Shown here piece after piece: positions 1,590-64,000 of a stretch of DNA of 64,000 bases. Under the pieces are notes generated by a model. That model saw nothing but the letters and a program-made list of their open reading frames with translations, was not told the DNA's origin and searched no databases. Source of the DNA: Henricia sp. BOLD:AAB3569 (Eukaryota > Echinodermata > Asteroidea > Spinulosida > Echinasteridae); NCBI GenBank assembly GCA_037783545.1, contig JBBELK010000096.1, positions 2,604,001 through 2,668,000 of the forward strand, read 5' to 3'. The position numbers were made by a program, and so were the translations under genes. The first letter of the stretch is position 1. Every line of letters starts with the position of its first letter.

Positions 1590-2955
1590 ATGCAAAATTT
1601 GAAGTTCGTTGGAAAATTTCTTGACTTCCAAATTTGCCGACGTTTGGACCACACTTTGACCAAATTCCCGTCCCAAACAAGACTGAGCATGCGCACGAGT
1701 CAGGAGTACACGGACAGCCACGGTCTGCAGAGCAGGCAGGAAGCCCGAGCCCAGTTTTCTCTAAACTCTGACATTTTCGGCCATTTCACGGCGAAAGTCT
1801 GTCAATTTTTCAGGACAAGTGCGGAATATAGACTGTTTGGAGCATGCAAAATTTGAAGTTCGTCGGAAAATTTATTGACTTCCAAATTTGCCGACGTTTG
1901 TACCACACTTTGACCAAATTCCCGTCCCAAACAAGACTGAGCATGCGCACGAGTCAGGAGTACACGGACAGCCACGGTCTGCAGAGTAGGCAGGAAGCCC
2001 GAGCCCAGTTTTCCCCAAACTCTGAAATTTCTCGGCCATTTCTCGGCGAAAGTCTGTCAATTTTTCAGGACAAGTGCGGAATATAGACTGTTTGGAGCAT
2101 GCAAATTTTGAAGTTCGTCTGAAAATATCTTGACTTCCAAATTTGCCGACGTTTGGACCACACTTTGACCAAATTCCCGTCCCAAACAAGACTGAGCATG
2201 CGCACGAGTGATCAGGAGTACACGGACAGCCACGGTTTGCAGAGCAGGCAGGAAGCCCGGGCCCAGTTTTCCCTAAACTCTGAAATTTCTCGGCCATTTC
2301 CCGGCGAAAGTCTGTCAATTTTCCAGGACAAGTGCGGAATATAGACTGTTTGGAGCATGCAAAATTTGAAGTACGTCGGAAAATTGTTGACTTCCAAATT
2401 TGCCGACGTTTGGACCACACTTTGACCAAATTCCCGTCCCAAACAAGACTGAGCATGCGCACGAGTGATCAGGAGTACACGGACAGCCACGGTCTGCAGA
2501 GCAGGCAGGAAGCCCGGGCCTAGTTTTCCCTAAACTCTGAAATTTCTCGGCCATTTCCCGGCGAAAGTCTGTCAATTTTCTAGGACAAGTGCGGAATATA
2601 GACTGTTTGGAGCAAGCAAAATTTGAAGTACGTCGGAAAATTTCTTGACTTCCAAATTTGCCGACGTTTGGACCACACTTTGACCAAATTCCCGTCCCAA
2701 ACAAGACTGAGCATGCGCACGAGTGATCAGGAATACACGGACAGCCACGGTCTGCAGAGCAGGCAGGAAGCCCGAGCCCAGTTTTCCCTAAACTCTGAAA
2801 TTTCTCGGCCATTTCCCGGCGAAAGTCTGTCAATTTTCCAGGACAAGTGCGGAATATAGACTGTTTGGAGCAAGCAAAATTTGAAGTACGTCGGAAAATT
2901 TCTTGACTTCCAAATTTGCCGACGTTTGGACCACACTTTGACCAAATTCCCGTCC

Positions 2956-2973
2956 CATGCTCAGTCGAGCATG
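2956..2973 (+). repeat. H-type perfect hairpin (7-bp stem, 4-nt loop), first of 41
   Basis: CATGCTC-AGTC-GAGCATG forms a perfect inverted repeat at monomer bases 85-102. It recurs in monomers starting at 2872, 3645, 5192, 5708, 6740, 7256, 8288, 9835, 10351, 11897, 12413, 13186, 16780, 19084, 21124, 22659, 24078, 25497, 28304, 29839, 31258, 35351, 36640, 36897, 38702, 39611, 42941, 44230, 44487, 46292, 47201, 49768, 50677, 54007, 55296, 55553, 57619, 59681, 59938, 61743 and 63548. The other monomers have AAACAAGACT in place of ATGCTCAGTC. In all but the F and D-like mosaics it goes with an AAGC head. Confidence 0.95.
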
Positions 2974-4434
2974 CGCACGAGTGATCAGGAGTACACGGAC
3001 AGCCACGGTCTGCAGAGCAGGCAGGAAGCCCGAGCCCAGTTTTCCCCAAACTCTGAAATTTCTCGGCCATTTCTCGGCGAAAGTCTGTCAATTTTTCAGG
3101 ACAAGTGCGGAATATAGACTGTTTGGAGCATGCAAATTTTGAAGTTCGTCTGAAAATATCTTGACTTCCAAATTTGCCGACGTTTGGACCACACTTTGAC
3201 CAAATTCCCGTCCCAAACAAGACTGAGCATGCGCACGAGTGATCAGGAGTACACGGACAGCCACGGTTTGCAGAGCAGGCAGGAAGCCCGGGCCCAGTTT
3301 TCCCTAAACTCTGAAATTTCTCGGCCATTTCCCGGCGAAAGTCTGTCAATTTTCCAGGACAAGTGCGGAATATAGACTGTTTGGAGCATGCAAAATTTAA
3401 AGTACGTCGGAAAATTGTTGACTTCCAAATTTGCCGACGTTTGGACCACACTTTGACCAAATTCCCGTCCCAAACAAGACTGAGCATGCGCACGAGTGAT
3501 CAGGAATACACGGACAGCCACGGTCTGCAGAGCAGGCAGGAAGCCCGAGCCCAGTTTTCCCTAAACTCTGAAATTTCTCGGCCATTTCCCGGCGAAAGTC
3601 TGTCAATTTTCCAGGACAAGTGCGGAATATAGACTGTTTGGAGCAAGCACAATTTGAAGTACGTCGGAAAATTTCTTGACTTCCAAATTTGCCGACGTTT
3701 GGACCACACTTTGACCAAATTCCCGTCCCATGCTCAGTCGAGCATGCGCACGAGTGATCAGGAGTACACGGACAGCCACGGTCTGCAGAGCAGGCAGGAA
3801 GCCCGAGCCCAGTTTTCCCCAAACTCTGAAATTTCTCGGCCATTTCTCGGCGAAAGTCTGTCAATTTTTCAGGACAAGTGCGGAATATAGACTGTTTGGA
3901 GCATGCAAATTTTGAAGTTCGTCTGAAAATATCTTGACTTCCAAATTTGCCGACGTTTGGACCACACTTTGACCAAATTCCCGTCCCAAACAAGACTGAG
4001 CATGCGCACGAGTGATCAGGAGTACACGGACAGCCACGGTTTGCAGAGCAGGCAGGAAGCCCGGGCCCAGTTTTCCCCAAACTCTGAAATTTCTCGGCCA
4101 TTTCTCGGCGAAAGTCTGTCAATTCTTCAGGACAAGTGCGGAATATAGACTGTTTGGAGCATGCAAAATTTTAAGTACGTCGGAAAATTTCTTGACTTCC
4201 AAATTTGCCGACGTTTGGACCACACTTTGACCAAATTCCCGTCCCAAACAAGACTGAGCATGCGCACGAGTGATCAGGAATACACGGACAGCCACGGTCT
4301 GCAGAGCAGGCAGGAAGCCCGAGCCCAGTTTTCCCTAAACTCTGAAATTTCTTGGCCATTTTCCGGCGAAAGTCTGTCAATTTTTCAGGACAAGTGCGGA
4401 ATATAGACTGTTTGGAGCATGCAAAATTTGAATT

Positions 4435-4472
4435 ACGTCGGAAAATTTCTTGACTTCCAAATTTTCCGACGT
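4435..4472 (+). repeat. Perfect 14-bp dyad in N monomer
   Basis: ACGTCGGAAAATTT and AAATTTTCCGACGT are exact reverse complements separated by the 10-nt CTTGACTTCC. In ordinary Y monomers the right arm is AAATTTGCCGACGT and pairs at 13 of 14 positions; N restores the last pair. Confidence 0.93.
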
Positions 4473-6239
4473 TTGGACCACACTTTGACCAAATTCCCGT
4501 CCCAAACAAGACTGAGCATGCGCACGAGTGATCAGGAATACACGGACAGCCACGGTCTGCAGAGCAGGCAGGAAGCCCGAGCCCAGTTTTCCCTAAACTC
4601 TGAAATTTCTCGGCCATTTCCCGGCGAAAGTCTGTCAATTTTTCAGGACAAGTGCGGAATATAGACTGTTTGGAGCATGCAAAATTTGAAGTACGTCGGA
4701 AAATTGTTGACTTCCAAATTTGCCGACGTTTGGACAACACTTTGACCAAATTCCCGTCCCAAACAAGACTGAGCATGCGCACGAGTGATCAGGAATACAC
4801 GGACAGCCACGGTCTGCAGAGCAGGCAGGAAGCCCGAGCCCAGTTTTCCCTAAACTCTGAAATTTCTCGGCAATTTCCCGGCGAAAGTCTGTCAATTTTT
4901 CAGGACAAGTGCGGAATATAGACTGTTTGGAGCATGCAAAATTTGAAGTTCGTCGGAAAATTTCTTGACTTCCAAATTTGCCGACGTTTGGACCACACTT
5001 TGACCAAATTCCCGTCCCAAACAAGACTGAGCATGCGCACGAGTGATCAGGAATACACGGACAGCCACGGTCTGCAGAGCAGGCAGGAAGCCCGAGCCCA
5101 GTTTTCCCTAAACTCTGAAATTTCTCGGCCATTTCCCGGCGAAAGTCGGTCAATTTTCCAGGACAAGTGCGGAATATAGACTGTTTGGAGCAAGCAAAAT
5201 TTGAAGTACGTCGGAAAATTTATTGACTTCCAAATTTGCCGACGTTTGGACCACACTTTGACCAAATTCCCGTCCCATGCTCAGTCGAGCATGCGCACGA
5301 GTGATCAGGAGTACACGGACAGCCACGGTCTGCAGAGCAGGCAGGAAGCCCGAGCCCAGTTTTCCCCAAACTCTGAAATTTCTCGGCCATTTCTCGGCGA
5401 AAGTCTGTCAATTTTTCAGGACAAGTGCGGAATATAGACTGTTTGGAGCATGCAAATTTTGAAGTTCGTCTGAAAATATCTTGACTTCCAAATTTGCCGA
5501 CGTTTGGACCACACTTTGACCAAATTCCCGTCCCAAACAAGACTGAGCATGCGCACGAGTGATCAGGAATACACGGACAGCCACGGTTTGCAGAGCAGGC
5601 AGGATGCCCGGGCCCAGTTTTCCCTAAACTCTGAAATTTCTCGGCCATTTCCCGGCGAAAGTCTGTCAATTTTCCAGGACAAGTGCGGAATATAGACTGT
5701 TTGGAGCAAGCAAAATTTGAAGTACGTCGGAAAATTTCTTGACTTCCAAATTTGCCGACGTTTGGACCACACTTTGACCAAATTCCCGTCCCATGCTCAG
5801 TCGAGCATGCGCACGAGTGATCAGGAGTACACGGACAGCCACGGTCTGCAGAGCAGGCAGGAAGCCCGAGCCCAGTTTTCCCCAAACTCTGAAATTTCTC
5901 GGCCATTTCTCGGCGAAAGTCTGTCAATTCTTCAGGACAAGTGCGGAATATAGACTGTTTGGAGCATGCAAAATTTGAAGTACGTCGGAAAATTTCTTGA
6001 CTTCCAAATTTGCCGACGTTTGGACCACACTTTGACCAAATTCCCGTCCCAAACAAGACTGAGCATGCGCACGAGTGATCAGGAATACACGGACAGCCAC
6101 GGTCTGCAGAGCAGGCAGGAAGCCCGAGCCCAGTTTTCCCTAAACTCTGAAATTTCTTGGCCATTTTCCGGCGAAAGTCTGTCAATTTTTCAGGACAAGT
6201 GCGGAATATAGACTGTTTGGAGCATGCAAAATTTGAATT

Positions 6240-6277
6240 ACGTCGGAAAATTTCTTGACTTCCAAATTTTCCGACGT
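6240..6277 (+). repeat. Perfect 14-bp dyad in N monomer
   Basis: Same perfect inverted repeat with 10-nt spacer as at 4435, in the N monomer starting at 6224. Confidence 0.92.
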
Positions 6278-7787
6278 TTGGACCACACTTTGACCAAATT
6301 CCCGTCCCAAACAAGACTGAGCATGCGCACGAGTGATCAGGAATACACGGACAGCCACGGTCTGCAGAGCAGGCAGGAAGCCCGAGCCCAGTTTTCCCTA
6401 AACTCTGAAATTTCTCGGCAATTTCCCGGCGAAAGTCTGTCAATTTTTCAGGACAAGTGCGGAATATAGACTGTTTGGAGCATGCAAAATTTGAAGTTCG
6501 TCGGAAAATTTCTTGACTTCCAAATTTGCCGACGTTTGGACCACACTTTGACCAAATTCCCGTCCCAAACAAGACTGAGCATGCGCACGAGTGATCAGGA
6601 ATACACGGACAGCCACGGTCTGCAGAGCAGGCAGGAAGCCCGAGCCCAGTTTTCCCTAAACTCTGAAATTTCTCGGCCATTTCCCGGCGAAAGTCGGTCA
6701 ATTTTCCAGGACAAGTGCGGAATATAGACTGTTTGGAGCAAGCAAAATTTGAAGTACGTCGGAAAATTTATTGACTTCCAAATTTGCCGACGTTTGGACC
6801 ACACTTTGACCAAATTCCCGTCCCATGCTCAGTCGAGCATGCGCACGAGTGATCAGGAGTACACGGACAGCCACGGTCTGCAGAGCAGGCAGGAAGCCCG
6901 AGCCCAGTTTTCCCCAAACTCTGAAATTTCTCGGCCATTTCTCGGCGAAAGTCTGTCAATTTTTCAGGACAAGTGCGGAATATAGACTGTTTGGAGCATG
7001 CAAATTTTGAAGTTCGTCTGAAAATATCTTGACTTCCAAATTTGCCGACGTTTGGACCACACTTTGACCAAATTCCCGTCCCAAACAAGACTGAGCATGC
7101 GCACGAGTGATCAGGAATACACGGACAGCCACGGTTTGCAGAGCAGGCAGGATGCCCGGGCCCAGTTTTCCCTAAACTCTGAAATTTCTCGGCCATTTCC
7201 CGGCGAAAGTCTGTCAATTTTCCAGGACAAGTGCGGAATATAGACTGTTTGGAGCAAGCAAAATTTGAAGTACGTCGGAAAATTTCTTGACTTCCAAATT
7301 TGCCGACGTTTGGACCACACTTTGACCAAATTCCCGTCCCATGCTCAGTCGAGCATGCGCACGAGTGATCAGGAGTACACGGACAGCCACGGTCTGCAGA
7401 GCAGGCAGGAAGCCCGAGCCCAGTTTTCCCCAAACTCTGAAATTTCTCGGCCATTTCTCGGCGAAAGTCTGTCAATTCTTCAGGACAAGTGCGGAATATA
7501 GACTGTTTGGAGCATGCAAAATTTGAAGTACGTCGGAAAATTTCTTGACTTCCAAATTTGCCGACGTTTGGACCACACTTTGACCAAATTCCCGTCCCAA
7601 ACAAGACTGAGCATGCGCACGAGTGATCAGGAATACACGGACAGCCACGGTCTGCAGAGCAGGCAGGAAGCCCGAGCCCAGTTTTCCCTAAACTCTGAAA
7701 TTTCTTGGCCATTTTCCGGCGAAAGTCTGTCAATTTTTCAGGACAAGTGCGGAATATAGACTGTTTGGAGCATGCAAAATTTGAATT

Positions 7788-7825
7788 ACGTCGGAAAATT
7801 TCTTGACTTCCAAATTTTCCGACGT
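7788..7825 (+). repeat. Perfect 14-bp dyad in N monomer
   Basis: Same perfect inverted repeat with 10-nt spacer, in the N monomer starting at 7772, which is the 1548-bp copy of the one at 6224. Confidence 0.92.
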
Positions 7826-8029
7826 TTGGACCACACTTTGACCAAATTCCCGTCCCAAACAAGACTGAGCATGCGCACGAGTGATCAGGAATACACGGAC
7901 AGCCACGGTCTGCAGAGCAGGCAGGAAGCCCGAGCCCAGTTTTCCCTAAACTCTGAAATTTCTCGGCAATTTCCCGGCGAAAGTCTGTCAATTTTCTAGG
8001 ACAAGTGCGGAATATAGACTGTTTGGAGC

Positions 8030-9576
8030 AAGCAAAATTTGAAGTACGTCGGAAAATTTCTTGACTTCCAAATTTGCCGACGTTTGGACCACACTTTGAC
8101 CAAATTCCCGTCCCAAACAAGACTGAGCATGCGCACGAGTGATCAGGAATACACGGACAGCCACGGTCTGCAGAGCAGGCAGGAAGCCCGAGCCCAGTTT
8201 TCCCTAAACTCTGAAATTTCTCGGCCATTTCCCGGCGAAAGTCTGTCAATTTTCCAGGACAAGTGCGGAATATAGACTGTTTGGAGCAAGCAAAATTTGA
8301 AGTACGTCGGAAAATTTCTTGACTTCCAAATTTGCCGACGTTTGGACCACACTTTGACCAAATTCCCGTCCCATGCTCAGTCGAGCATGCGCACGAGTGA
8401 TCAGGAGTACACGGACAGCCACGGTCTGCAGAGCAGGCAGGAAGCCCGAGCCCAGTTTTCCCCAAACTCTGAAATTTCTCGGCCATTTCTCGGCGAAAGT
8501 CTGTCAATTTTTCAGGACAAGTGCGGAATATAGACTGTTTGGAGCATGCAAATTTTGAAGTTCGTCTGAAAATATCTTGACTTCCAAATTTGCCGACGTT
8601 TGGACCACACTTTGACCAAATTCCCGTCCCAAACAAGACTGAGCATGCGCACGAGTGATCAGGAGTACACGGACAGCCACGGTTTGCAGAGCAGGCAGGA
8701 AGCCCGGGCCCAGTTTTCCCCAAACTCTGAAATTTCTCGGCCATTTCTCGGCGAAAGTCTGTCAATTCTTCAGGACAAGTGCCGAATATAGACTGTTTGG
8801 AGCATGCAAAATTTGAAGTACGTCGGAAAATTTCTTGACTTCCAAATTTGCCGACGTTTGGACCACACTTTGACCAAATTCCCGTCCCAAACAAGACTGA
8901 GCATGCGCACGAGTGATCAGGAATACACGGACAGCCACGGTCTGCAGAGCAGGCAGGAAGCCCGAGCCCAGTTTTCCCTAAACTCTGAAATTTCTTGGCC
9001 ATTTTCCGGCGAAAGTCTGTCAATTTTTCAGGACAAGTGCGGAATATAGACTGTTTGGAGCATGCAAAATTTGAATTACGTCGGAAAATTTCTTGACTTC
9101 CAAATTTTCCGACGTTTGGACCACACTTTGACCAAATTCCCGTCCCAAACAAGACTGAGCATGCGCACGAGTGATCAGGAATACACGGACAGCCACGGTC
9201 TGCAGAGCAGGCAGGAAGCCCGAGCCCAGTTTTCCCTAAACTCTGAAATTTCTCGGCCATTTCCCGGCGAAAGTCTGTCAATTTTTCAGGACAAGTGCGG
9301 AATATAGACTGTTTGGAGCATGCAAAATTTGAAGTACGTCGGAAAATTGTTGACTTCCAAATTTGCCGACGTTTGGACAACACTTTGACCAATTTCCCGT
9401 CCCAAACAAGACTGAGCATGCGCACGAGTGATCAGGAATACACGGACAGCCACGGTCTGCAGAGCAGGCAGGAAGCCCGAGCCCAGTTTTCCCTAAACTC
9501 TGAAATTTCTCGGCAATTTCCCGGCGAAAGTCTGTCAATTTTTCAGGACAAGTGCGGAATATAGACTGTTTGGAGC
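8030..9576 (+). repeat. Block S-H-D-Y-N-V
   Basis: Monomers start at S 8030, H 8288, D 8546, Y 8804, N 9062 and V 9320. D-Y-N-V repeats the order at 3903-4933, with a one-base difference GTGCCGAAT near 8780 and CCAATTTCCCG near 9390. The preceding monomer ends with TTTTCTAGGACAAG, as the one before 11124 also does, so S and the tail of its left neighbour travel together. Confidence 0.9.
9078..9115 (+). repeat. Perfect 14-bp dyad in N monomer
   Basis: Same perfect inverted repeat with 10-nt spacer, in the N monomer starting at 9062. Confidence 0.92.
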
Positions 9577-12500
9577 ATGCAAAATTTGAAGTTCGTCGGA
9601 AAATTTCTTGACTTCCAAATTTGCCGACGTTTGGACCACACTTTGACCAAATTCCCGTCCCAAACAAGACTGAGCATGCGCACGAGTGATCAGGAATACA
9701 CGGACAGCCACGGTCTGCAGAGCAGGCAGGAAGCCCGAGCCCAGTTTTCCCTAAACTCTGAAATTTCTCGGCCATTTCCCGGCGAAAGTCGGTCAATTTT
9801 CCAGGACAAGTGCGGAATATAGACTGTTTGGAGCAAGCAAAATTTGAAGTACGTCGGAAAATTTATTGACTTCCAAATTTGCCGACGTTTGGACCACACT
9901 TTGACCAAATTCCCGTCCCATGCTCAGTCGAGCATGCGCACGAGTGATCAGGAGAACACGGACAGCCACGGTCTGCAGAGCAGGCAGGAAGCCCGAGCCC
10001 AGTTTTCCCCAAACTCTGAAATTTCTCGGCCATTTCTCGGCGAAAGTCTGTCAATTTTTCAGGACAAGTGCGGAATATAGACTGTTTGGAGCATGCAAAT
10101 TTTGAAGTTCGTCTGAAAATATCTTGACTTCCAAATTTGCCGACGTTTGGACCACACTTTGACCAAATTCCCGTCCCAAACAAGACTGAGCATGCGCACG
10201 AGTGATCAGGAATACACGGACAGCCACGGTTTGCAGAGCAGGCAGGAAGCCCGGGCCCAGTTTTCCCTAAACTCTGAAATTTCTCGGCCATTTCCCGGCG
10301 AAAGTCTGTCAATTTTCCAGGACAAGTGCGGAATATAGACTGTTTGGAGCAAGCAAAATTTGAAGTACGTCGGAAAATTTCTTGACTTCCAAATTTGCCG
10401 ACGTTTGGACCACACTTTGACCAAATTCCCGTCCCATGCTCAGTCGAGCATGCGCACGAGTGATCAGGAGTACACGGACAGCCACGGTCTGCAGAGCAGG
10501 CAGGAAGCCCGAGCCCAGTTTTCCCCAAACTCTGAAATTTCTCGGCCATTTCTCGGCGAAAGTCTGTCAATTCTTCAGGACAAGTGCGGAATATAGACTG
10601 TTTGGAGCATGCAAAATTTGAAGTACGTCGGAAAATTGTTGACTTCCAAATTTGCCGACGTTTGGACAACACTTTGACCAAATTCCCGTCCCAAACAAGA
10701 CTGAGCATGCGCACGAGTGATCAGGAATACACGGACAGCCACGGTCTGCAGAGCAGGCAGGAAGCCCGAGCCCAGTTTTCCCTAAACTCTGAAATTTCTC
10801 GGCAATTTCCCGGCGAAAGTCTGTCAATTTTTCAGGACAAGTGCGGAATATAGACTGTTTGGAGCATGCAAAATTTGAATTACGTCGGAAAATTTCTTGA
10901 CTTCCAAATTTTCCGACGTTTGGACCACACTTTGACCAAATTCCCGTCCCAAACAAGACTGAGCATGCGCACGAGTGATCAGGAATACACGGACAGCCAC
11001 GGTCTGCAGAGCAGGCAGGAAGCCCGAGCCCAGTTTTCCCTAAACTCTGAAATTTCTCGGCAATTTCCCGGCGAAAGTCTGTCAATTTTCTAGGACAAGT
11101 GCGGAATATAGACTGTTTGGAGCAAGCAAAATTTGAAGTACGTCGGAAAATTTCTTGACTTCCAAATTTGCCGACGTTTGGACCACAATTTGACCAAATT
11201 CCCGTCCCAAACAAGACTGAGCATGCGCACGAGTGATCAGGAATACACGGACAGCCACGGTCTGCAGAGCAGGCAGGAAGCCCGAGCCCAGTTTTCCCTA
11301 AACTCTGAAATTTCTCGGCCATTTCCCGGCGAAAGTCTGTCAATTTTTCAGGACAAGTGCGGAATATAGACTGTTTGGAGCATGCAAAATTTGAAGTACG
11401 TCGGAAAATTGTTGACTTCCAAATTTGCCGACGTTTGGACAACACTTTGACCAAATTCCCGTCCCAAACAAGACTGAGCATGCGCACGAGTGATCAGGAA
11501 TACACGGACAGCCACGGTCTGCAGAGCAGGCAGGAAGCCCGAGCCCAGTTTTCCCTAAACTCTGAAATTTCTCGGCAATTTCCCGGCGAAAGTCTGTCAA
11601 TTTTTCAGGACAAGTGCGGAATATAGACTGTTTGGAGCATGCAAAATTTGAAGTTCGTCGGAAAATTTCTTGACTTCCAAATTTGCCGACGTTTGGACCA
11701 CACTTTGACCAAATTCCCGTCCCAAACAAGACTGAGCATGCGCACGAGTGATCAGGAATACACGGACAGCCACGGTCTGCAGAGCAGGCAGGAAGCCCGA
11801 GCCCAGTTTTCCCTAAACTCTGAAATTTCTCGGCCATTTCCCGGCGAAAGTCGGTCAATTTTCCAGGACAAGTGCGGAATATAGACTGTTTGGAGCAAGC
11901 AAAATTTGAAGTACGTCGGAAAATTTATTGACTTCCAAATTTGCCGACGTTTGGACCACACTTTGACCAAATTCCCGTCCCATGCTCAGTCGAGCATGCG
12001 CACGAGTGATCAGGAGTACACGGACAGCCACGGTCTGCAGAGCAGGCAGGAAGCCCGAGCCCAGTTTTCCCCAAACTCTGAAATTTCTCGGCCATTTCTC
12101 GGCGAAAGTCTGTCAATTTTTCAGGACAAGTGCGGAATATAGACTGTTTGGAGCATGCAAATTTTGAAGTTCGTCTGAAAATATCTTGACTTCCAAATTT
12201 GCCGACGTTTGGACCACACTTTGACCAAATTCCCGTCCCAAACAAGACTGAGCATGCGCACGAGTGATCAGGAATACACGGACAGCCACGGTTTGCAGAG
12301 CAGGCAGGAAGCCCGGGCCCAGTTTTCCCTAAACTCTGAAATTTCTCGGCCATTTCCCGGCGAAAGTCTGTCAATTTTCCAGGACAAGTGCGGAATATAG
12401 ACTGTTTGGAGCAAGCAAAATTTGAAGTACGTCGGAAAATTTCTTGACTTCCAAATTTGCCGACGTTTGGACCACACTTTGACCAAATTCCCGTCCCATG

Positions 12501-50934: not shown

Positions 50935-51192
50935 ATGCAAAATTTGAAGTTGGGCGGAAAATGTCTTGACTTCCAAATTTGCCGACGTTTGGACCACACT
51001 TTGACCAAATTCCCGTCCCAAACAAGACTGAGCATGCGCACGAGTGATCAGGAGTACACGGACAGCCACGGTCTGCAGAGCAGGCAGGAAGCCCGGGCCC
51101 AGTTTTCCCTAAACTCTGAAATTTCTCGGCCATTTCCCGGCGAAAGTCTGTCAATTTTTCAGGACAAGTGCGGAATATAGACTGTTTGGAGC
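50935..51192 (+). repeat. Mosaic monomer: Gq head, Gk/K tail
   Basis: The head is Gq (GTTGGGCGG, CCAAATTTGCCG), but the rest has CCCGTCCC, GAAGCCCGGGCCC and CCCTAAAC. Gq at 47459 has CCCCTCCC, GCCCGAGCCC and CCCCAAAC in those places. It replaces a Gq plus K pair, so one monomer was lost by exchange at this point, and the trimer block that follows begins directly. Confidence 0.86.
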
Positions 51193-52716: not shown

Positions 52717-54522
52717 ATGCAAAATTTGAAGTTCGTCGGAAAATGTCTTGACTTCAAAATGTTTCGACGTTTGGACCACACTTTGACCAAATTCCCGTCC
52801 CAAACAAGACTGAGCATGCGCACGAGTGATCAGGAGCACACGGACAGCCACGGTCTGCAGAGCAGGAAGGAAGCCCGAGCCCAGTTTTCCCTAAACTCTG
52901 AAATTTATCGGCCATTTCCCGGCGAAAGTCTGTCAATTTTTCAGGACAAGTGCGGAATATAGACTGTTTGGAGCATGCAACATTTAAAGTTCGTCGGAAA
53001 ATGTCTTGACTTCAAAATTTGCCGACGTTTGAACCACACTTTGACCAAATTCCCGTCCCAAACAAGACTGAGCATGCGCACGAGTGATCAGGAGTACACG
53101 GACAGCCACGGTCTGCAGAGCAGGCAGGAAGCCCGAGCCCAGTTTTCCACAAACTCTGAAATATCTCGGCCATTTCCCGGCGAAAGTCTGTCAATTTTTC
53201 AGGACAAGTGCGGAATATAGACTGTTTGGAGCATGCAAAATTTGAAGTACGTCGGAAAATTTCTTGACTTCCAAATTTGCCGACGTTTGGACCACACTTT
53301 GACCAAATTCCCGTCCCAAACAAGACTGAGCATGCGCACGAGTGATCAGGAGTACACGGACAGCCACGGTCTGCAGAGCAGGCAGGAAGCCCGAGCCCAG
53401 TTTTCCACAAACTCTGAAATATCTCGGCCATTTCCCGGCGAAAGTCTGTCAATTTTTCAGGACAAGTGCGGAATATAGACTGTTTGGAGCATGCAAAATT
53501 TGAAGTACGTCGGAAAATTTCTTGACTTCCAAATTTGCCGACGTTTGGACCACACTTTGACCAAATTCCCGTCCCAAACAAGACTGAGCATGCGCACGAG
53601 TGATCAGGAATACACGGACAGCCACGGTCTGCAGAGCAGGCAGGAAGCCCGAGCCCAGTTTTCCCTAAACTCTGAAATTTCTCGGCAATTTCCCGGCGAA
53701 AGTCTGTCAATTTTTCAGGACAAGTGCGGAATATAGACTGTTTGGAGCATGCAAAATTTGAAGTTCGTCGGAAAATTTCTTGACTTCAAAATTTGCCGAC
53801 GTTTGGACCACACTTTGACCAAATTCCCGTCCCAAACAAGACTGAGCATGCGCACGAGTGATCAGGAATACACGGACAGCCACGGTCTGCAGAGAAGGCA
53901 GGAAGCCCGAGCCCAGTTTTCCCTAAACTCTGAAATTTCTCGGCCATTTCCCGGCGAAAGTCTGTCAATTTTCCAGGACAAGTGCGGAATATAGACTGTT
54001 TGGAGCAAGCAAAATTTGAAGTACGTCGGAAAATTTCTTGAGTTCCAAATTTGCCGACGTTTGGACCACACTTTGACCAAATTCCCGTCCCATGCTCAGT
54101 CGAGCATGCGCACGAGTGATCAGGAGTACACGGACAGCCACGGTCTGCAGAGCAGGCAGGAAGCCCGAGCCCAGTTTTCCCCAAACTCTGAAATTTCTCG
54201 GCCATTTCTCGGCGAAAGTCTGTCAATTTTTCAGGACAAGTGCGGAATATAGACTGTTTGGAGCATGCAAAATTTGAAGTACGTCGGTAAATTTCTTGAC
54301 TTCCAAATTTGCCGACGTTTGGACCACACTTTGACCAAATTCCCGTCCCAAACAAGACTGAGCATGCGCACGAGTGATCAGGAATACACGGACAGCCACG
54401 GTCTGCAGAGCAGGCAGGAAGCCCGAGCCCAGTTTTCCCTAAACTCTAAAATTTCTTGGCCATTTCCCGGCGAAAGTCTGTCAATTTTTCAGGACAAGTG
54501 CGGAATATAGACTGTTTGGAGC
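52717..54522 (+). repeat. M-A-Y-Y-Fk-H-Yt block with one extra monomer
   Basis: Monomers start at M 52717, A 52975, Y/A mosaic 53233, Y 53491, Fk 53749, H 54007 and Yt 54265. The block matches 41909-43456 with offset 10808 bp before the extra monomer and 11066 bp after it, a difference of exactly 258 bp. H at 54007 keeps the CTTGAGTTCC mark. Confidence 0.92.
53233..53490 (+). repeat. Extra mosaic monomer: Y head, A tail
   Basis: The head is Y type (GAAGTACGTCGG), but the tail repeats that of the preceding A monomer (TTTTCCACAAACTCTGAAATATCTC). The related blocks at 34577-34835 and 42167-42425 have a single A followed by a single Y. One monomer was therefore added by an exchange one repeat out of register, with the crossover inside the monomer. 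Confidence 0.88.
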
Positions 54523-57500
54523 ATGCAAAATTTGAAGTACGTCGGAAAATTTCTTGACTTCCAAATTTGCCGACGTTTGGACCACACTTTGACCAAATTC
54601 CCGTCCCAAACAAGACTGAGCATGCGCACGAGTGATCAGGAATACACGGACAGCCACGGTCTGCAGAGCAGGCAGGAAGCCCGAGCCCAGTTTTCCCTAA
54701 AATCTGAAATTTCTCGGCCATTTCCCGGCGAAAGTCTGTCAATTTTTCAGGACAAGTGCGGAATATAGACTGTTTGGAGCATGCAAAATTTGAAGTACGT
54801 CGGAAAATTGTTGACTTCCAAATTTGCCGACGTTTGGACAACACTTTGACCAAATTCCCGTCCCAAACAAGACTGAGCATGCGCACGAGTGATCAGGAAT
54901 ACACGGACAGCCACGGTCTGCAGAGCAGGCACGAAGCCCGAGCCCAGTTTTACCTAAACTCTGAAATTTCTCGGCAATTTCCCGGCGAAAGTCTGTCAAT
55001 TTTTCAGGACAAGTGCGGAATATAGACTGTTTGGAGCATGCAAAATTTGAAGTTCGTCGGAAAATTTCTTGACTTCAAAATTTGCCGACGTTTGGACCAC
55101 ACTTTGACCAAATTCCCGTCCCAAACAAGACTGAGCATGCGCACGAGTGATCAGGAGTACACGGACAGCCACGGTCTGCAGAGCAGGCAGGAAGCCGGGG
55201 CCTAGTTTTCCCTAAACTCTGAAATTTCTCGGCCATTTCCCGGCGAAAGTCTGTCAATTTTCCAGGACAAGTGCGGAATATAGACTGTTTGGAGCAAGCA
55301 AAATTTGAAGTACGTCGGAAAATTTCTTGACTTCCAAATTTGCCGACGTTTGGACCACACTTTGACCAAATTCCGTCCCATGCTCAGTCGAGCATGCGCA
55401 CGAGTGATCAGGAGTACACGGACAGCCACGGTCTGCAGAGCAGGCAGGAAGCCCGAGCCCAGTTTTCCCCAAACTCTGAAATTTCTCGGCCATTTCTCGG
55501 CGAAAGTCTGTCAATTTTTCAGGACAAGTGCGGAATATAGACTGTTTGGAGCATGCAAATTTTGAAGTTCGTCTGAAAATATCTTGACTTCCAAATTTGC
55601 CGACGTTTGTACCACACTTTGACCAAATTCCCGTCCCATGCTCAGTCGAGCATGCGCACGAGTGATCAGGAGTACACGGACAGCCACGGTCTGCAGAGCA
55701 GGCAGGAAGCCCGAGCCCAGTTTTCCCCAAACTCTGAAATTTCTCGGCCATTTCTCGGCGAAAGTCTGTCAATTTTTCAGGACAAGTGCGGAATATAGAC
55801 TGTTTGGAGCATGCAAAATTTGAAGTACGTCGGTAAATTTCTTGACTTCCAAATTTGCCGACGTTTGGACCACACTTTGACCAAATTCCCGTCCCAAACA
55901 AGACTGAGCATGCGCACGAGTGATCAGGAATACACGGACAGCCACAGTCTGCAGAGCAGGCAGGAAGCCCGAGCCCAGTTTTCCCTAAACTCTGAAATTT
56001 CTTGGCCATTTCCCGGCGAAAGTCTGTCAATTTTTCAGGACAAGTGCGGAATATAGACTGTTTGGAGCATGCAAAATTTGAAGTACGTCGGAAAATTTCT
56101 TGACTTCCAAATTTGCCGACGTTTGGACCACACTTTGACCAAATTCCCGTCCCAAACAAGACTGAGCATGCGCACGAGTGATCAGGAATACACGGACAGC
56201 CACGGTCTGCAGAGCAGGCAGGAAGCCCGAGCCCAGTTTTCCCTAAACTCTGAAATTTCTCGGCCATTTCCCGGCGAAAGTCTGTCAATTTTTCAGGACA
56301 AGTGCGGAATATAGACTGTTTGGAGCATGCAAAATTTGAAGTACGTCGGAAAATTGTTGACTTCCAAATTTGCCGACGTTTGGACAACACTTTGACCAAA
56401 TTCCCGTCCCAAACAAGACTGAGCATGCGCACGAGTGATCAGGAGTACACGGACAGCCACGGTCTGCAGAGCAGGCAGGAAGCCCGGGCCTAGTTTTCCC
56501 TAAACTCTGAAATTTCTCGGCCATTTCCCGGCGAAAGTCTGTCAATTTTCCAGGACAAGTGCGGAATATAGACTGTTTGGAGCATGCAAAATTTGAAGCT
56601 CGTCGCAAAATTTCTTGACTTCCAAATTTGCCGACGTTTGGACCACACTTTGACCAAATTCCCGTCCCAAACAAGACTGAGCATGCGCACGAGTGATCAG
56701 GAGTACACGGACAGCCACGGTCCGCAGAGCAGGCAAGAAGCCCGAGCCCAGTTTTCCCCAAACTCTGAAATTTCTCGGCCATTTCCAGGCGAAAGTCTGT
56801 CAATTTTTCAGGACAAGTGCGGAGGAATATGGACTGTTTGGAGCATGCACAATTTGAAGTACGTCGGTAAATTTCTTGACTTCCAAATTTGCCGACGTTT
56901 GGACCACACTTTGACCAAATTCCCGTCCCAAACAAGACTGAGCATGCGCACGAGTGATCAGGAATACACGGACAGCCACGGTCTGCAGAGCAGGCAGGAA
57001 GCCCGAGCCCAGTTTTCCCTAAACTCTGAAATTTCTTGGCCATTTCCCGGCGAAAGTCTGTCAATTTTTCAGGACAAGTGCGGAATATAGACTGTTTGGA
57101 GCATGCAAAATTTGAAGTACGTCGGAAAATTTCTTGACTTCCAAATTTGCCGACGTTTGGACCACACTTTGACCAAATTCCCGTCCCAAACAAGACTGAG
57201 CATGCGCACGAGTGATCAGGAGTACACGGACAGCCACGGTCTGCAGAGCAGGCAGGAAGCCCGGGCCTAGTTTTCCCTAAACTCTGAAATTTCTCGGCCA
57301 TTTCCCGGCGAAAGTCTGTCAATTTTCCAGGACAAGTGCGGAATATAGACTGTTTGGAGCAAGCAAAATTTGAAGTACGTCGGAAAATTTCTTGACTTCC
57401 AAATTTGCCGACGTTTGGACCACACTTTGACCAAATTCCCGTCCCAAACAAGACTGAGCATGCGCACGAGTGATCAGGAATACACGGACAGCCACCGTCT

Positions 57501-60500
57501 GCAGAGCAGGCAGGAAGCCCGAGCCCAGTTCTCCCTAAACTCTGAAATTTCTCGGCCATTTCCCGGCGAAAGTCTGTCAATTTTCCAGGACAAGTGCGGA
57601 ATATAGACTGTTTGGAGCAAGCAAAATTTGAAGTACGTCGGAAAATTTCTTGACTTCCAAATTTGCCGACGTTTGGACCACACTTTGACCAAATTCCCGT
57701 CCCATGCTCAGTCGAGCATGCGCACGAGTGATCAGGAGTACACGGACAGCCACGGTCTGCAGAGCAGGCAGGAAGCCCGAGCCCAGTTTTCCCCAAACTC
57801 TGAAATTTCTCGGCCATTTCTCGGCGAAAGTCTGTCAATTTTTCAGGACAAGTGCGGAATATAGACTGTTTGGAGCATGCAAAATTTGAAGTACGTCGGT
57901 AAATTTCTTGACTTCCAAATTTGCCGACGTTTGGACCACACTTTGACCAAATTCCCGTCCCAAACAAGACTGAGCATGCGCACGAGTGATCAGGAATACA
58001 CGGACAGCCACGGTCTGCAGAGCAGGCAGGAAGCCAGAGCCCAGTTTTCCCTAAACTCTGAAATTTCTTGGCCATTTCCCGGCGAAAGTCTGTCAATTTT
58101 TCAGGACAAGTGCGGAATATAGACTGTTTGGAGCATGCAAAATTTGAAGTACGTCGGAAAATTTCTTGACTTCCAAATTTGCCGACGTTTGGACCACACT
58201 TTGACAAAATTCCCGTCCCAAACAAGACTGAGCATGCGCACGAGTGATCAGGAATACACGGACAGCCACGGTCTGCAGAGCAGGCAGGAAGACCGAGCCC
58301 AGTTTTCCCTAAACTCTGAAATTTCTCGGCCATTTCCCGGCGAAAGTCTGTCAATTTTTCAGGACAAGTGCGGAATATAGACTGTTTGGAGCATGCAAAA
58401 TTTGAAGTACGTCGGGAAATTGTTGACTTCCAAATTTGCCGACGTTTGGACAACACTTTGACCAAATTCCCGTCCCAAACAAGACTGAGCATGCGCACGA
58501 GTGATCAGGAATACACGGACAGCCACGGTCTGCAGAGCAGGCAGGAAGCCCGAGCCCAGTTTTACCTAAACTCTGAAATTTCTCGGCAATTTCCCGGCGA
58601 AAGTCTGTCAATTTTTCAGGACAAGTGCGGAATATAGACTGTTTGGAGCATGCAAAATTTGAAGTTCGTCGGAAAATTTCTTGACTTCAAAATTTGCCGA
58701 CGTTTGGACCACACTTTGACCAAATTCCCGTCCCAAACAAGACTGAGCATGCGCACGAGTGATCAGGAGTACACGGACAGCCACGGTCTGCAGAGCAGGC
58801 AGGAAGCCCGGGCCTAGTTTTCCCTAAACTCTGAAATTTCTCGGCCATTTCCCGGCGAAAGTCTGTCAATTTTTCAGGACAAGTGCGGAATATAGACTGT
58901 TTGGAGCATGCAAAATTTGAAGTACGTCGGAAAATTTCTTGACTTCCAAATTTGCCGACGTTTGGACCACACTTTGACCAAATTCCCGTCCCAAACAAGA
59001 CTGAGCATGCGCACGAGTGATCAGGAATACACGGACAGCCACGGTCTGCAGAGCAGGCAGGAAGCCCGAGCCCAGTTTTCCCTAAAATCTGAAATTTCTC
59101 GGCCATTTCCCGGCGAAAGTCTGTCAATTTTTCAGGACAAGTGCGGAATATAGACTGTTTGGAGCATGCAAAATTTGAAGTACGTCGGAAAATTGTTGAC
59201 TTCCAAATTTGCCGACGTTTGGACAACACTTTGACCAAATTCCCGTCCCAAACAAGACTGAGCATGCGCACGAGTGATCAGGAATACACGGACAGCCACG
59301 GTCTGCAGAGCAGGCAGGAAGCCCGAGCCCAGTTTTACCTAAACTCTGAAATTTCTCGGCAATTTCCCGGCGAAAGTCTGTCAATTTTTCAGGACAAGTG
59401 CGGAATATAGACTGTTTGGAGCATGCAAAATTTGAAGTTCGTCGGAAAATTTCTTGACTTCAAAATTTGCCGACGTTTGGACCACACTTTGACCAAATTC
59501 CCGTCCCAAACAAGACTGAGCATGCGCACGAGTGATCAGGAGTACACGGACAGCCACGGTCTGCAGAGCAGGCAGGAAGCCGGGGCCTAGTTTTCCCTAA
59601 ACTCTGAAATTTCTCGGCCATTTCCCGGCGAAAGTCTGTCAATTTTCCAGGACAAGTGCGGAATATAGACTGTTTGGAGCAAGCAAAATTTGAAGTACGT
59701 CGGAAAATTTCTTGACTTCCAAATTTGCCGACGTTTGGACCACACTTTGACCAAATTCCGTCCCATGCTCAGTCGAGCATGCGCACGAGTGATCAGGAGT
59801 ACACGGACAGCCACGGTCTGCAGAGCAGGCAGGAAGCCCGAGCCCAGTTTTCCCCAAACTCTGAAATTTCTCGGCCATTTCTCGGCGAAAGTCTGTCAAT
59901 TTTTCAGGACAAGTGCGGAATATAGACTGTTTGGAGCATGCAAATTTTGAAGTTCGTCTGAAAATTTCTTGACTTCCAAATTTGCCGACGTTTGGACCAC
60001 ACTTTGACCAAATTCCCGTCCCATGCTCAGTCGAGCATGCGCACGAGTGATCAGGAGTACACGGACAGCCACGGTCTGCAGAGCAGGCAGGAAGCCCGAG
60101 CCCAGTTTTCCCCAAACTCTGAAATTTCTCGGCCATTTCTCGGCGAAAGTCTGTCAATTTTTCAGGACAAGTGCGGAATATAGACTGTTTGGAGCATGCA
60201 AAATTTGAAGTACGTCGGTAAATTTCTTGACTTCCAAATTTGCCGACGTTTGGACCACACTTTGACCAAATTCCCGTCCCAAGCAAGACTGAGCATGCGC
60301 ACGAGTGATCAGGAATACACGGACAGCCACAGTCTGCAGAGCAGGCAGGAAGCCCGAGCCCAGTTTTCCCTAAACTCTGAAATTTCTTGGCCATTTCCCG
60401 GCGAAAGTCTGTCAATTTTTCAGGACAAGTGCGGAATATAGACTGTTTGGAGCATGCAAAATTTGAAGTACGTCGGAAAATTTCTTGACTTCCAAATTTG

Positions 60501-63031
60501 CCGACGTTTGGACCACACTTTGACCAAATTCCCGTCCCAAACAAGACTGAGCATGCGCACGAGTGATCAGGAATACACGGACAGCCACGGTCTGCAGAGC
60601 AGGCAGGAAGCCCGAGCCCAGTTTTCCCTAAACTCTGACATTTCTCGGCCATTTCCCGGCGAAAGTCTGTCAATTTTTCAGGACAAGTGCGGAATATAGA
60701 CTGTTTGGAGCATGCAAAATTTGAAGTACGTCGGAAAATTGTTGACTTCCAAATTTGCCGACGTTTGGACAACACTTTGACCAAATTCCCGTCCCAAACA
60801 AGACTGAGCATGCGCACGAGTGATCAGGAGTACACGGACAGCCACGGTCTGCAGAGCAGGCAGGAAGCCCGGGCCTAGTTTTCCCTAAACTCTGAAATTT
60901 CTCGGCCATTTCCCGGCGAAAGTCTGTCAATTTTCCAGGACAAGTGCGGAATATAGACTGTTTGGAGCATGCAAAATTTGAAGTACGTCGGTAAATTTCT
61001 TGACTTCCAAATTTGCCGACGTTTGGACCACACTTTGACCAAATTCCCGTCCCAAACAAGACTGAGCATGCGCACGAGTGATCAGGAATACACGGACAGC
61101 CACGGTCTGCAGAGCAGGCAGGAAGCCCGAGCCCAGTTTTCCCTAAAGTCTGAAATTTCTTGGCCATTTCCCGGCGAAAGTCTGTCAATTTTTCAGGACA
61201 AGTGCGGAATATAGACTGTTTGGAGCATGCAAAATTTGAAGTACGTCGGAAAATTTCTTGACTTCCAAATTTGCCGACGTTTGGACCACACTTTGACCAA
61301 ATTCCCGTCCCAAACAAGACTGAGCATGCGCACGAGTGATCAGGAGTACACGGACAGCCACGGTCTGCAGAGCAGGCAGGAAGCCCGGGCCTAGTTTTCC
61401 CTAAACTCTGAAATTTCTCGGCCATTTCCCGGCGAAAGTCTGTCAATTTTCCAGGACAAGTGCGGAATATAGACTGTTTGGAGCAAGCAAAATTTGAAGT
61501 ACGTCGGAAAATTTCTTGACTTCCAAATTTGCCGACGTTTGGACCACACTTTGACCAAATTCCCGTCCCAAACAAGACTGAGCATGCGCACGAGTGATCA
61601 GGAATACACGGACAGCCACCGTCTGCAGAGCAGGCAGGAAGCCCGAGCCCAGTTCTCCCTAAACTCTGAAATTTCTCGGCCATTTCCCGGCGAAAGTCTG
61701 TCAATTTTCCAGGACAAGTGCGGAATATAGACTGTTTGGAGCAAGCAAAATTTGAAGTACGTCGGAAAATTTCTTGACTTCCAAATTTGCCGACGTTTGG
61801 ACCACACTTTGACCAAATTCCCGTCCCATGCTCAGTCGAGCATGCGCACGAGTGATCAGGAGTACACGGACAGCCACGGTCTGCAGAGCAGGCAGGAAGC
61901 CCGAGCCCAGTTTTCCCCAAACTCTGAAATTTCTCGGCCATTTCTCGGCGAAAGTCTGTCAATTTTTCAGGACAAGTGCGGAATATAGACTGTTTGGAGC
62001 ATGCAAAATTTGAAGTACGTCGGTAAATTTCTTGACTTCCAAATTTGCCGACGTTTGGACCACACTTTGACCAAATTCCCGTCCCAAACAAGACTGAGCA
62101 TGCGCACGAGTGATCAGGAATACACGGACAGCCACGGTCTGCAGAGCAGGCAGGAAGCCCGAGCCCAGTTTTCCCTAAACTCTGAAATTTCTTGGCCATT
62201 TCCCGGCGAAAGTCTGTCAATTTTTCAGGACAAGTGCGGAATATAGACTGTTTGGAGCATGCAAAATTTGAAGTACGTCGGAAAATTTCTTGACTTCCAA
62301 ATTTGCCGACGTTTGGACCACACTTTGACAAAATTCCCGTCCCAAACAAGACTGAGCATGCGCACGAGTGATCAGGAATACACGGACAGCCACGGTCTGC
62401 AGAGCAGGCAGGAAGACCGAGCCCAGTTTTCCCTAAACTCTGAAATTTCTCGGCCATTTCCCGGCGAAAGTCTGTCAATTTTTCAGGACAAGTGCGGAAT
62501 ATAGACTGTTTGGAGCATGCAAAATTTGAAGTACGTCGGGAAATTGTTGACTTCCAAATTTGCCGACGTTTGGACAACACTTTGACCAAATTCCCGTCCC
62601 AAACAAGACTGAGCATGCGCACGAGTGATCAGGAATACACGGACAGCCACGGTCTGCAGAGCAGGCAGGAAGCCCGAGCCCAGTTTTACCTAAACTCTGA
62701 AATTTCTCGGCAATTTCCCGGCGAAAGTCTGTCAATTTTTCAGGACAAGTGCGGAGAATAGACTGTTTGGAGCATGCAAAATTTGAAGTTCGTCGGAAAA
62801 TTTCTTGACTTCAAAATTTGCCGACGTTTGGACCACACTTTGACCAAATTCCCGTCCCAAACAAGACTGAGCATGCGCACGAGTGATCAGGAGTACACGG
62901 ACAGCCACGGTCTGCAGAGCAGGCAGGAAGCCCGGGCCTAGTTTTCCCTAAACTCTGAAATTTCTCGGCCATTTCCCGGCGAAAGTCTGTCAATTTTCCA
63001 GGACAAGTGCGGAATATAGACTGTTTGGAGC
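54523..63031 (+). repeat. Tandem duplication, units of 4385 and 4124 bp
   Basis: First unit 54523-58907: Y, V 54781, Fk 55038, H 55296 (257 bp), D/H mosaic 55553, Yt 55811, Y 56069, V 56327, X 56584 (261 bp), Yt 56845, Y 57103, S 57361, H 57619, Yt 57877, Y 58135, V 58393, Fk 58650. Second unit 58908-63031 has the same order without X: 58908, 59166, 59423, 59681, 59938, 60196, 60454, 60712, 60969, 61227, 61485, 61743, 62001, 62259, 62517, 62774. Shared private marks include TTTGACAAAATTC, GGAAGACCGAG and GTCGGGAAATTG. Differences are about ten single changes (for example 54930, 58035, 60281, 61147) plus X, so this pair is somewhat older than the 7590-bp pair or has exchanged patches since. 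Confidence 0.92.
56584..56844 (+). repeat. Divergent monomer X (261 bp), present once
   Basis: It carries many changes found nowhere else in the window: GAAGCTCGTCGCAAAATTTC, GGTCCGCAGAGCAGGCAAG (CTGCAG lost) and GCGGAGGAATATGG (three added bases and loss of the TAG seen in nearly every other monomer). TTTCCAGGCG is shared only with the subfamily A monomer at 853. Three other copies of the surrounding block (37671-37928, 45261-45518, 48737-48994) and the second tandem unit (60712-60969) go straight from V to Yt, so X was gained here. Its parent sequence must lie outside the window. Confidence 0.9.
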
Positions 63032-64000
63032 AAGCAAAATTTGAAGTACGTCGGAAAATTTCTTGACTTCCAAATTTGCCGACGTTTGGACCACACTTTG
63101 ACCAAATTCCCGTCCCAAACAAGACTGAGCATGCGCACGAGTGATCAGGAATACACGGACAGCCACGGTCTGCAGAGCAGGCAGGAAGCCCGAGCCCAGT
63201 TCTCCCTAAACTCTGAAATTTCTCGGCCATTTCCCGGCGAAAGTCTGTCAATTTTCCAGGACAAGTGCGGAATATAGACTGTTTGGAGCATGCAAATTTT
63301 GAAGTTCGTCTGAAAATATCTTGACTTCCAAATTTGCCGACGTTTGGACCACACTTTGACCAAATTCCCGTCCCAAACAAGACTGAGCATGCGCACGAGT
63401 GATCAGGAGTACACGGACAGCCACGGTCTGCAGAGCAGGCAGGAAGCCCGGGCCCAGTTTTCCCTAAACTCTGACATTTCTCGGCCATTTCCCGGCGAAA
63501 GTCTGTCAATTTTCCAGGACAAGTGCGGAATATAGACTGTTTGGAGCAAGCAAAATTTGAAGTACGTCGGAAAATTTCTTGACTTCCAAATTTGCCGACG
63601 TTTGGACCACACTTTGACCAAATTCCCGTCCCATGCTCAGTCGAGCATGCGCACGAGTGATCAGGAGTACACGGACAGCCACGGTCTGCAGAGCAGGCAG
63701 GAAGCCCGAGCCCAGTTTTCCCCAAACTCTGAAATTTCTCGGCCATTTATCGGCGAAAGTCTGTCAATTCTTCAGGACAAGTGCGGAATATAGACTGTTT
63801 GGAGCATGCAAAATTTGAAGTACGTCGGAAAATTTCTTGACTGCCAAATTTGCCGACGTTTGGACCACACTTTGACCAAATTCCCGTCCCAAACAAGACT
63901 GAGCATGCGCACGAGTGATCAGGAGTACACGGACAGCCACGGTCTGCAGAGCAGGCAGGAAGCCCGGGCCTAGTTTTCCCTAAACTCTGAAATTTCTCGG
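63032..64000 (+). repeat. Right-edge block S-D-H-Y (last partial)
   Basis: Monomers start at S 63032, D 63290, H 63548 and Y 63806, the last cut by the window end at its base 195. A true D monomer with AAAATATCTTG reappears here after being absent since about 12.2 kb (only a D-like head at 55553 lies between). The last Y has CTTGACTGCC. The array evidently continues to the right. Confidence 0.92.

What the first reader, a model, noticed from the sequence alone, without database searches (positions are those of the whole stretch)
2872..63805. Templated 10-base inversion created a hairpin now spread through 41 monomers
In H monomers bases 86-95 read ATGCTCAGTC where ordinary monomers read AAACAAGACT. 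ATGCTCAGTC is the exact reverse complement of GACTGAGCAT, which is bases 92-101 of the ordinary monomer, i.e. the immediately adjacent sequence. A single local template switch (copying the opposite strand for 10 bases) explains all the substitutions at once and produces the perfect CATGCTC-AGTC-GAGCATG hairpin. Because the variant always has the same boundaries and usually goes with the AAGC head, it looks like one event later amplified, a molecular tag for how the array expanded. Whether the hairpin itself promotes exchange or protein binding is inference.
Basis: partly seen in the sequence, partly recalled or inferred. Interest (0 to 1): 0.72.

Follow-up and report, generated by a model that had tools for sequence, protein, structure and literature searches.

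The report
Single copying slip tags satellite repeats
In a long tandem-repeat array, probably of a sea star, one brief copying slip onto the opposite DNA strand rewrote a short stretch of a single repeat into a perfect hairpin, and ordinary array turnover then multiplied that marked repeat more than a hundred times; the mutation type is known, but it makes an unusually clean natural marker of how such arrays grow.

Summary
The window is a ~258-bp tandem satellite, all on one strand. 41 of 246 parsed junction boxes read CATGCTCAGTC-GAGCATG instead of CAAACAAGACT-GAGCATG. The new stretch is the exact reverse complement of the 11 bases that abut and overlap it; eight bases change, not ten. Genome-wide there are 140 such boxes: 132 in a 172-kb stretch of contig C96, and 8 on the opposite strand that I could not locate. 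Ordinary boxes number 33,149.

Five genome-wide searches for largely or partly converted boxes returned only the 140. Isolated one-change variants, and three copies with two of the eight changes, do exist. Of the 132 local copies, 119 share one flanking core and 13 are one step from it; linkage decays on both sides. That means one origin followed by reshuffling. The geometry requires an inter-strand template switch under the four-point model.

I found no sign that the hairpin promotes exchange: repeated-block edges are not enriched for it.

Verdict: a real, clean new example of a known mutation process, useful as a marker of array turnover; no function shown.

The parts
1..64000 (+). tandem satellite array, ~258-bp monomer, about 247 monomers, all in one orientation; part of an array covering at least C96:2560001 to ~2811900 of the host genome
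200..217 (+). ordinary (Y) box, example: CAAACAAGACTGAGCATG; its last 11 bases (207-217, GACTGAGCATG) are the template segment
2956..2973 (+). H box 1 of 41: CATGCTC-AGTC-GAGCATG; inverted copy = first 11 bases, 7-bp stem, 4-base loop
3729..3746 (+). H box
5276..5293 (+). H box
5792..5809 (+). H box
6824..6841 (+). H box
7340..7357 (+). H box
8372..8389 (+). H box
9919..9936 (+). H box
10435..10452 (+). H box
11981..11998 (+). H box
12497..12514 (+). H box
13270..13287 (+). H box
16864..16881 (+). H box
19168..19185 (+). H box
21208..21225 (+). H box
22743..22760 (+). H box
24162..24179 (+). H box
25581..25598 (+). H box
28388..28405 (+). H box
29923..29940 (+). H box
31342..31359 (+). H box
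35435..35452 (+). H box
36723..36740 (+). H box
36981..36998 (+). H box
38786..38803 (+). H box
39695..39712 (+). H box
43025..43042 (+). H box
44313..44330 (+). H box
44571..44588 (+). H box
46376..46393 (+). H box
47285..47302 (+). H box
49852..49869 (+). H box
50761..50778 (+). H box
54091..54108 (+). H box
55379..55396 (+). H box
55637..55654 (+). H box
57703..57720 (+). H box
59764..59781 (+). H box
60022..60039 (+). H box
61827..61844 (+). H box
63632..63649 (+). H box 41 of 41
33024..40613 (+). 7,590-bp block of about 30 monomers (C96:2637024 onward) whose near-identical copy follows at 40614; an example of how H boxes were carried by block duplication
   Evidence: run of 31 monomers, lag 30

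Best explanation
One satellite monomer suffered a single short-range, inter-strand template switch. Synthesis left the ordinary template after CCC(A), copied 9-11 bases (GACTGAGCATG) off the opposite strand, and came back at GAGCATG. This replaced AAACAAGACT by ATGCTCAGTC with no change in length and left a perfect 7-bp stem with a 4-base loop. Shown: the templated match, the absence of largely converted forms in the searches made, the single core haplotype of the 132 C96 copies, and the decay of linkage with distance. Derived from geometry: under the four-point model the point order is 1-3-4-2 (or its mirror 3-1-2-4). In both readings point 2 lies ahead of point 1, so a nascent-strand fold-back cannot do it, and the loop itself is inverted. 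Inferred: the tagged monomer then spread by ordinary array turnover (duplication of multi-monomer blocks, unequal exchange and short conversion tracts) to 132 copies over 172 kb, and to 8 copies elsewhere. The hairpin is most likely a passive tag. Whether the switch was made by a replicative polymerase at a stalled fork or during break-induced repair cannot be told from the product.
For: Exact 11-base reverse-complement match abutting and overlapping its source; 8 changed sites within 9 bases, no length change. The 9-base span does not occur on the same strand within one monomer either side. Among 986 monomers it is the only equal-length replacement cluster of 4 or more differences; the other clusters are insertions or deletions, some with a substitution beside them, and one single-copy mixed replacement. 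Genome-wide: 140 H against 33,149 ordinary boxes, so H is taken as derived. Partial forms: none in four degenerate searches and none within 3 mismatches of H. One core haplotype for 119 of 132, the other 13 one step away. D' is 1 in size at all 11 common variant sites (25 copies or more) outside the box from -46 to +76; variants shared with H appear at -54 and beyond, and from +77. Core divergence from own consensus: 0.13% for H against 1.96% for ordinary monomers of the same domain. Spread in blocks: 98 of 132 H lie in repeated runs of 3 or more near-identical monomers; 81 of 100 runs of H are of length 1. Precedents seen: PMC8794818 (abstract, introduction, first results section), PMC7954356 (abstract, passages), PMC8604942 (passages; yeast REG2 shows arm conversion plus spacer inversion in one event).
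Against: Point variants that share one of the eight changes exist: T at the second position is common on C81 (491 boxes match the open pattern with T there, of which 140 are H), and three of the ~100 places listed carry two of the eight. In the C96 region one box has G at the third position and two have G at the eighth (984 parsed matches, three of them mis-parsed). They are on another contig or isolated, and nothing joins them to H. H is not one clade on a whole-monomer tree (19 changes), though recombination explains that. Entry microhomology is only 2 bases and exit none. Ordinary monomers all around carry the template segment, so the template could have been another monomer. The 8 opposite-strand H copies were not located, so their flanks beyond the two bases before and four after the box are unknown.
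Confidence: 0.88

Rival explanations
1. The inverted stretch was patched in from elsewhere: a microhomology-mediated break repair, or a conversion from a satellite copy lying in the opposite orientation, supplied the 11 bases in trans.
For: Ordinary boxes occur in similar numbers on both strands of the assembly (16,797 and 16,352), so inverted donors may exist; contig orientation is arbitrary, so this is weak. PMC8755829 (passages, abstract among them) argues for microhomology-mediated break-induced replication in microinversions with short flanking repeats.
Against: The patch lands exactly beside its own source, which a trans donor has no reason to do; entry microhomology is 2 bases and exit none (from the sequences).
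Confidence: 0.08
2. The hairpin arose stepwise by point mutations, kept because the dyad is useful (for example as a protein or cruciform site).
For: Single changes shared with H, and one double in three copies, exist on C81; isolated single ones on C96.
Against: No form within 3 mismatches of H, none with the adjacent pairs at positions 2-3, 5-6 or 7-8, or with the last four, short of full H; the loop, which need not pair, is also the exact inverse of the old sequence.
Confidence: 0.01
3. The same switch happened several times in different monomers (a mutational hot spot).
For: 19 state changes on the whole-monomer tree; two H haplotypes are identical outside the box to ordinary monomers; 8 copies lie elsewhere.
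Against: One core haplotype with one-step derivatives only among the 132; identical limits in all 140; 33,149 ordinary boxes genome-wide against 140 H. Identical H/Y pairs are also expected from short conversion tracts.
Confidence: 0.03
4. The hairpin drives its own spread by provoking breaks or biased conversion.
For: H folds to -6.1 kcal/mol as single-stranded DNA against 0 for the ordinary box; H monomers have more near-identical partners (mean 24.0 against 10.1).
Against: Edges of repeated blocks are not enriched for H (0.195, 0.180, 0.171 under three settings against about 0.196); monomers just outside carry it no more often (0.188) or less often (0.130, 0.132; 99% and 94% of label rotations were at least as high). 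None of the common variants from -46 to +76 is found on H. Seven single-base variants in the same monomers are commoner than H, though two of them (+91, +118) owe most of their copies to H. Adjacent H pairs 32 against 27.6 expected, sd 4.1. The high partner count follows from youth.
Confidence: 0.05

Closest known systems
Short-range template-switch mutations, four-point model (Loytynoja and Goldman 2017, recalled; Walker et al. 2021, PMC7954356, abstract and passages seen)
   Same: A cluster of substitutions explained by one reverse-complement copy from a few bases away; leaves a perfect inverted repeat; no length change here.
   Different: Walker et al. name 1-4-3-2 and 3-2-1-4 as the majority patterns; here the order is 1-3-4-2 or its mirror, and the event lies in a tandem satellite and was then amplified.
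Hairpin creation by template switching in RNA genes (PMC8794818; abstract, introduction and first results section read)
   Same: One event makes a perfect stem; in multicopy rRNA genes the authors found phylogenetic inconsistency that they ascribe to recombination, as here.
   Different: There it was sought in RNA genes; here it is in satellite DNA with no known transcript.
Inter-molecular switching with spacer inversion in yeast genes (PMC8604942, passages seen; REG2)
   Same: Arm conversion and spacer inversion in one event.
   Different: REG2 began with a 5-bp inverted repeat; here only 2 bases of microhomology existed.
Array turnover by unequal exchange or break-induced replication (PMC8997354, passages seen)
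   Same: Multi-monomer blocks are duplicated and variants spread.
   Different: No regular higher-order period was found here over lags 1-60, and no centromere evidence is available.

Membership tests
Short-range template-switch mutation | new segment is the reverse complement of nearby ancestral sequence | tested here: met
   11-base exact match abutting and overlapping its source
Short-range template-switch mutation | replaces a cluster of apparent independent changes in one step (no intermediates) | tested here: met
   only full H; one-change variants, and three copies with two changes, occur elsewhere or singly
Short-range template-switch mutation | ancestral and derived states resolved | tested here: met
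   33,149 ordinary against 140 H boxes genome-wide; by frequency only, no other species was available
Short-range template-switch mutation | significant log-probability ratio under the published pair HMM | not tested
   program not available; only a match-probability calculation was made
Inter-strand switch type | point 2 ahead of point 1 in both directions of synthesis | tested here: met
   point order worked out by hand from the coordinates and the rule stated in PMC7954356
Satellite higher-order repeat | regular multi-monomer period | tested here: not met
   mean difference by lag stays between 11.7 and 13.7 over lags 1-60; duplicated blocks have mixed lengths
Centromeric satellite with dyad | centromere protein occupancy | not testable with these tools
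   no chromatin data

The most novel reading that the evidence does not exclude
The switch-made hairpin is an active element: it stalls forks or favours conversion onto neighbours, so that one replication slip created a self-spreading satellite variant.
Probability: 0.05. Interest if true: 0.75.

Novelty: new member of a known kind. Interest (0 to 1): 0.4.

Why it matters
Variants in satellite arrays are usually single substitutions that can recur. An eight-site, one-step change is very unlikely to recur, so every copy marks descent from one monomer. That turns this array into a pedigree in which block duplication, conversion tract length and exchange points can be read directly. It is also a clear case of template switching seeding a satellite variant that then amplified.

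Tried and rejected
Breakpoint enrichment at H: none under three settings. Rfam scan of the window: no match at gathering scores. Higher-order period: none found over lags 1-60. Other templated replacements in the array: none among the variant strings of six letters or more compared with the consensus; shorter strings were not compared. Single-clade test on whole monomers: not useful, because monomers recombine. Literature, eight searches: five sought template switching together with satellites, hairpins, rDNA or inversion, one the short-template-switch papers, one sea star satellites (20 of 673 papers listed), one microinversions and satellites (12 of 483 listed). In their listings I saw no report of a template-switch-made, amplified satellite variant; the library is open-access papers only. 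Species: a sea star is inferred from mitochondrial gene order (small rRNA forward, large rRNA reverse, Leu/Gly/Tyr and Leu/Asn tRNAs reverse, COX1 forward); that this order marks Asteroidea is recalled, and no call names the organism.
Full report
WHAT IS THERE. The whole window is one tandem satellite with a monomer of about 258 bp, all copies in the same orientation. It lies at C96:2604001-2668000 of a 740.7-Mb genome. Together with 194 kb of neighbouring sequence that I fetched, the array fills everything from C96:2560001 to about 2811900 and then gives way to a different sequence; its left end was not reached. The ordinary junction box CCCAAACAAGACTGAGCATG has 33,149 exact copies genome-wide, on both strands. 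Mitochondrial gene order suggests a sea star: small rRNA forward, large rRNA reverse, Leu/Gly/Tyr and Leu/Asn tRNAs reverse ahead of COX1; that this order is typical of sea stars is recalled, not tested.

CHECK OF THE OBSERVATION. 41 boxes in the window read CATGCTCAGTCGAGCATG; of 246 boxes parsed, 204 are ordinary, 41 are H and 1 is a point variant. Eight of ten bases differ (positions 2, 3 and 5-10 after the C), not all ten. The inverted match is 11 bases, CATGCTCAGTC, the reverse complement of GACTGAGCATG, and the search found only this placement (with its two shorter sub-spans). A random 9-mer would match somewhere in reverse complement within a monomer either side about once in 1,000, and within 30-48 bases about twice in 10,000. 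As single-stranded DNA the 18-base H box folds at -6.1 kcal/mol, the ordinary box not at all; in a 52-base context the values are -7.5 and -3.0.

EXTENT. Genome-wide there are 140 H boxes, 132 on the + strand and 8 on the - strand. All 132 lie in C96:2606956-2778777. What is known of the 8 is that they share the box, two bases before it and four after it.

INTERMEDIATES. Four degenerate patterns, each fixing one group of changes (last four; positions 2-3; positions 5-6; positions 7-8) and leaving the other changed sites free between old and new letter, each returned exactly 132 + 8, the full H set. Up to 3 mismatches from the H 23-mer also gave only 132 + 8. Against this, T at position 2 alone is common on C81: 491 boxes match the open pattern with T there, 140 of them H, and three of the roughly 100 places listed carry a second shared change. 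In the C96 region, one box has G at position 3 and two have G at position 8 (three of its 984 matches are mis-parsed). These look like ordinary point mutations: not contiguous, and not amplified on H's array. Eight specified substitutions at the local divergence of about 4.5% (11.2 differences over 247 sites) would have a probability near (0.015)^8, about 3e-15 per monomer (my arithmetic).

ONE ORIGIN. Of 986 monomers aligned, 132 are H. With the box left out, the 77-site core around it is a single haplotype in 119 of 132 H monomers, and the other 13 are single-step derivatives of it; 194 ordinary monomers carry the same founder core. The 11 common variant sites outside the box from -46 to +76 (25 copies or more) never show the variant on H, although they do on ordinary monomers; further out some do. 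Mean divergence from own consensus in the core is 0.13% for H and 1.96% for ordinary monomers of the same domain; outside the core it is 1.22% and 3.04%. This is the signature of one recent founder whose outer parts were replaced by exchange with neighbours. On a tree of whole monomers without the box (450 rows after merging identical ones, 54 of them H) the label changes 19 times, against a mean of 51.9 and a minimum of 47 in 100 shuffles: strongly grouped but not one clade, as expected with recombination. Two H haplotypes are identical outside the box to ordinary monomers, as short conversion tracts would give. The 8 copies elsewhere are not part of these tests.

MECHANISM. In the four-point description (PMC7954356, passages seen) the points lie in the order 1-3-4-2 on the ancestral sequence, or 3-1-2-4 if synthesis ran the other way (worked out by hand). 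In both, the jump goes ahead of the growing end. By the rule in that paper this excludes a fold-back on the nascent strand and requires the opposite strand as template. The inverted loop (GACT to AGTC) says the same; yeast REG2 (PMC8604942, passages) is the nearest precedent seen, with arm conversion and spacer inversion in one inter-molecular event. Entry microhomology is 2 bases (CA), exit none. Ordinary monomers all around carry the template, so a neighbour could have served; adjacency favours the local one. Break-induced repair with microhomology (PMC8755829, passages) would leave the same product.

HOW IT SPREAD. 98 of 132 H monomers lie in runs of three or more monomers that recur near-identically elsewhere in the region (ordinary monomers of the domain 444 of 540). 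The largest repeated runs are 31 monomers (shift of 7,590 bp) and 29 monomers (8,000 bp). H boxes are mostly isolated: 81 of 100 runs are single, one run has 12; adjacent pairs are 32 against 27.6 expected (sd 4.1) (which parsed 937 boxes and dropped some variant ones, so neighbours are approximate). So H rode in blocks and was shuffled. There is no regular higher-order period over lags 1-60.

DOES THE HAIRPIN DO ANYTHING? Edges of repeated blocks carry H no more often than chance (0.195, 0.180, 0.171 under three settings, against about 0.196). Monomers just outside the edges carry it about as often or less (0.188, 0.130, 0.132; for the last two, 99% and 94% of label rotations were at least as high). 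Seven single-base variants in the same 986 monomers are commoner than H, although two of them (+91 and +118) owe most of their copies to H. The ordinary monomer already holds a stronger hairpin (-10.5 kcal/mol). H monomers do have more near-identical partners (mean 24.0 against 10.1), which youth explains but drive could too. A passive tag is the simplest reading. Self-promotion by biased conversion is not excluded, because loss of H by conversion leaves no trace in one assembly.

NOVELTY. The mutation type is established. In the listings of the eight literature searches I saw no report of a template-switch variant amplified in a satellite, but the listings were capped and the library covers open-access papers only. 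I file it as a new member of a known kind, with value as a one-time genealogical marker.

Noticed in passing
G000:C81, e.g. 425522-1039337: An ordinary-box point variant CATACAAGACT recurs many times on C81 (nearly all of the ~100 places listed), a second, independent local marker; three copies carry a further change.
   Followed up: no
each ordinary monomer, e.g. window 133-168: The ordinary monomer carries a near-perfect inverted repeat, CGTCGGAAAATTT...AAATTTGCCGACG; the form with one more outer pair folds at -10.5 kcal/mol as DNA.
   Followed up: partly
window 23624-23899, 25043-25318, 30804-31079, 39157-39432, 46747-47022, 50223-50498: Six places with a shortened 135-bp partial monomer, probably carried along by block duplications.
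   Followed up: no
C96:2565314 and 45 other monomers, also window ~780 and ~1520: A monomer class lacking 32 bases (CTAAACTC...CCCGG), matched in number by a 4-base insertion CCGT or CTGT nearby (35 + 11); possibly another single complex event.
   Followed up: no
C96:2785124: One monomer has a 95-bp insertion, part of which looks able to pair with itself (AACAATGG...CCATTGTT), perhaps a small mobile element.
   Followed up: no
AAGC head, C96 and elsewhere: The AAGC head 27-mer occurs 139 times genome-wide: 108 in the fetched C96 region and 31 elsewhere, two of them listed on C81. So it is not confined to H's array and may be older than H, or recurrent.
   Followed up: partly
G000:C955: Three COX1 copies spaced exactly 16,221 bp, the length of mitochondrial contig C2104: probably an assembly read-through of the mitochondrial circle.
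   Followed up: no
C96:~2811900 onward: At its right end the satellite breaks off inside a box and is followed by a different, apparently also repeated sequence (GTGAATAGCGTGAATACGTTTTCACC twice in the stretch printed).
   Followed up: no
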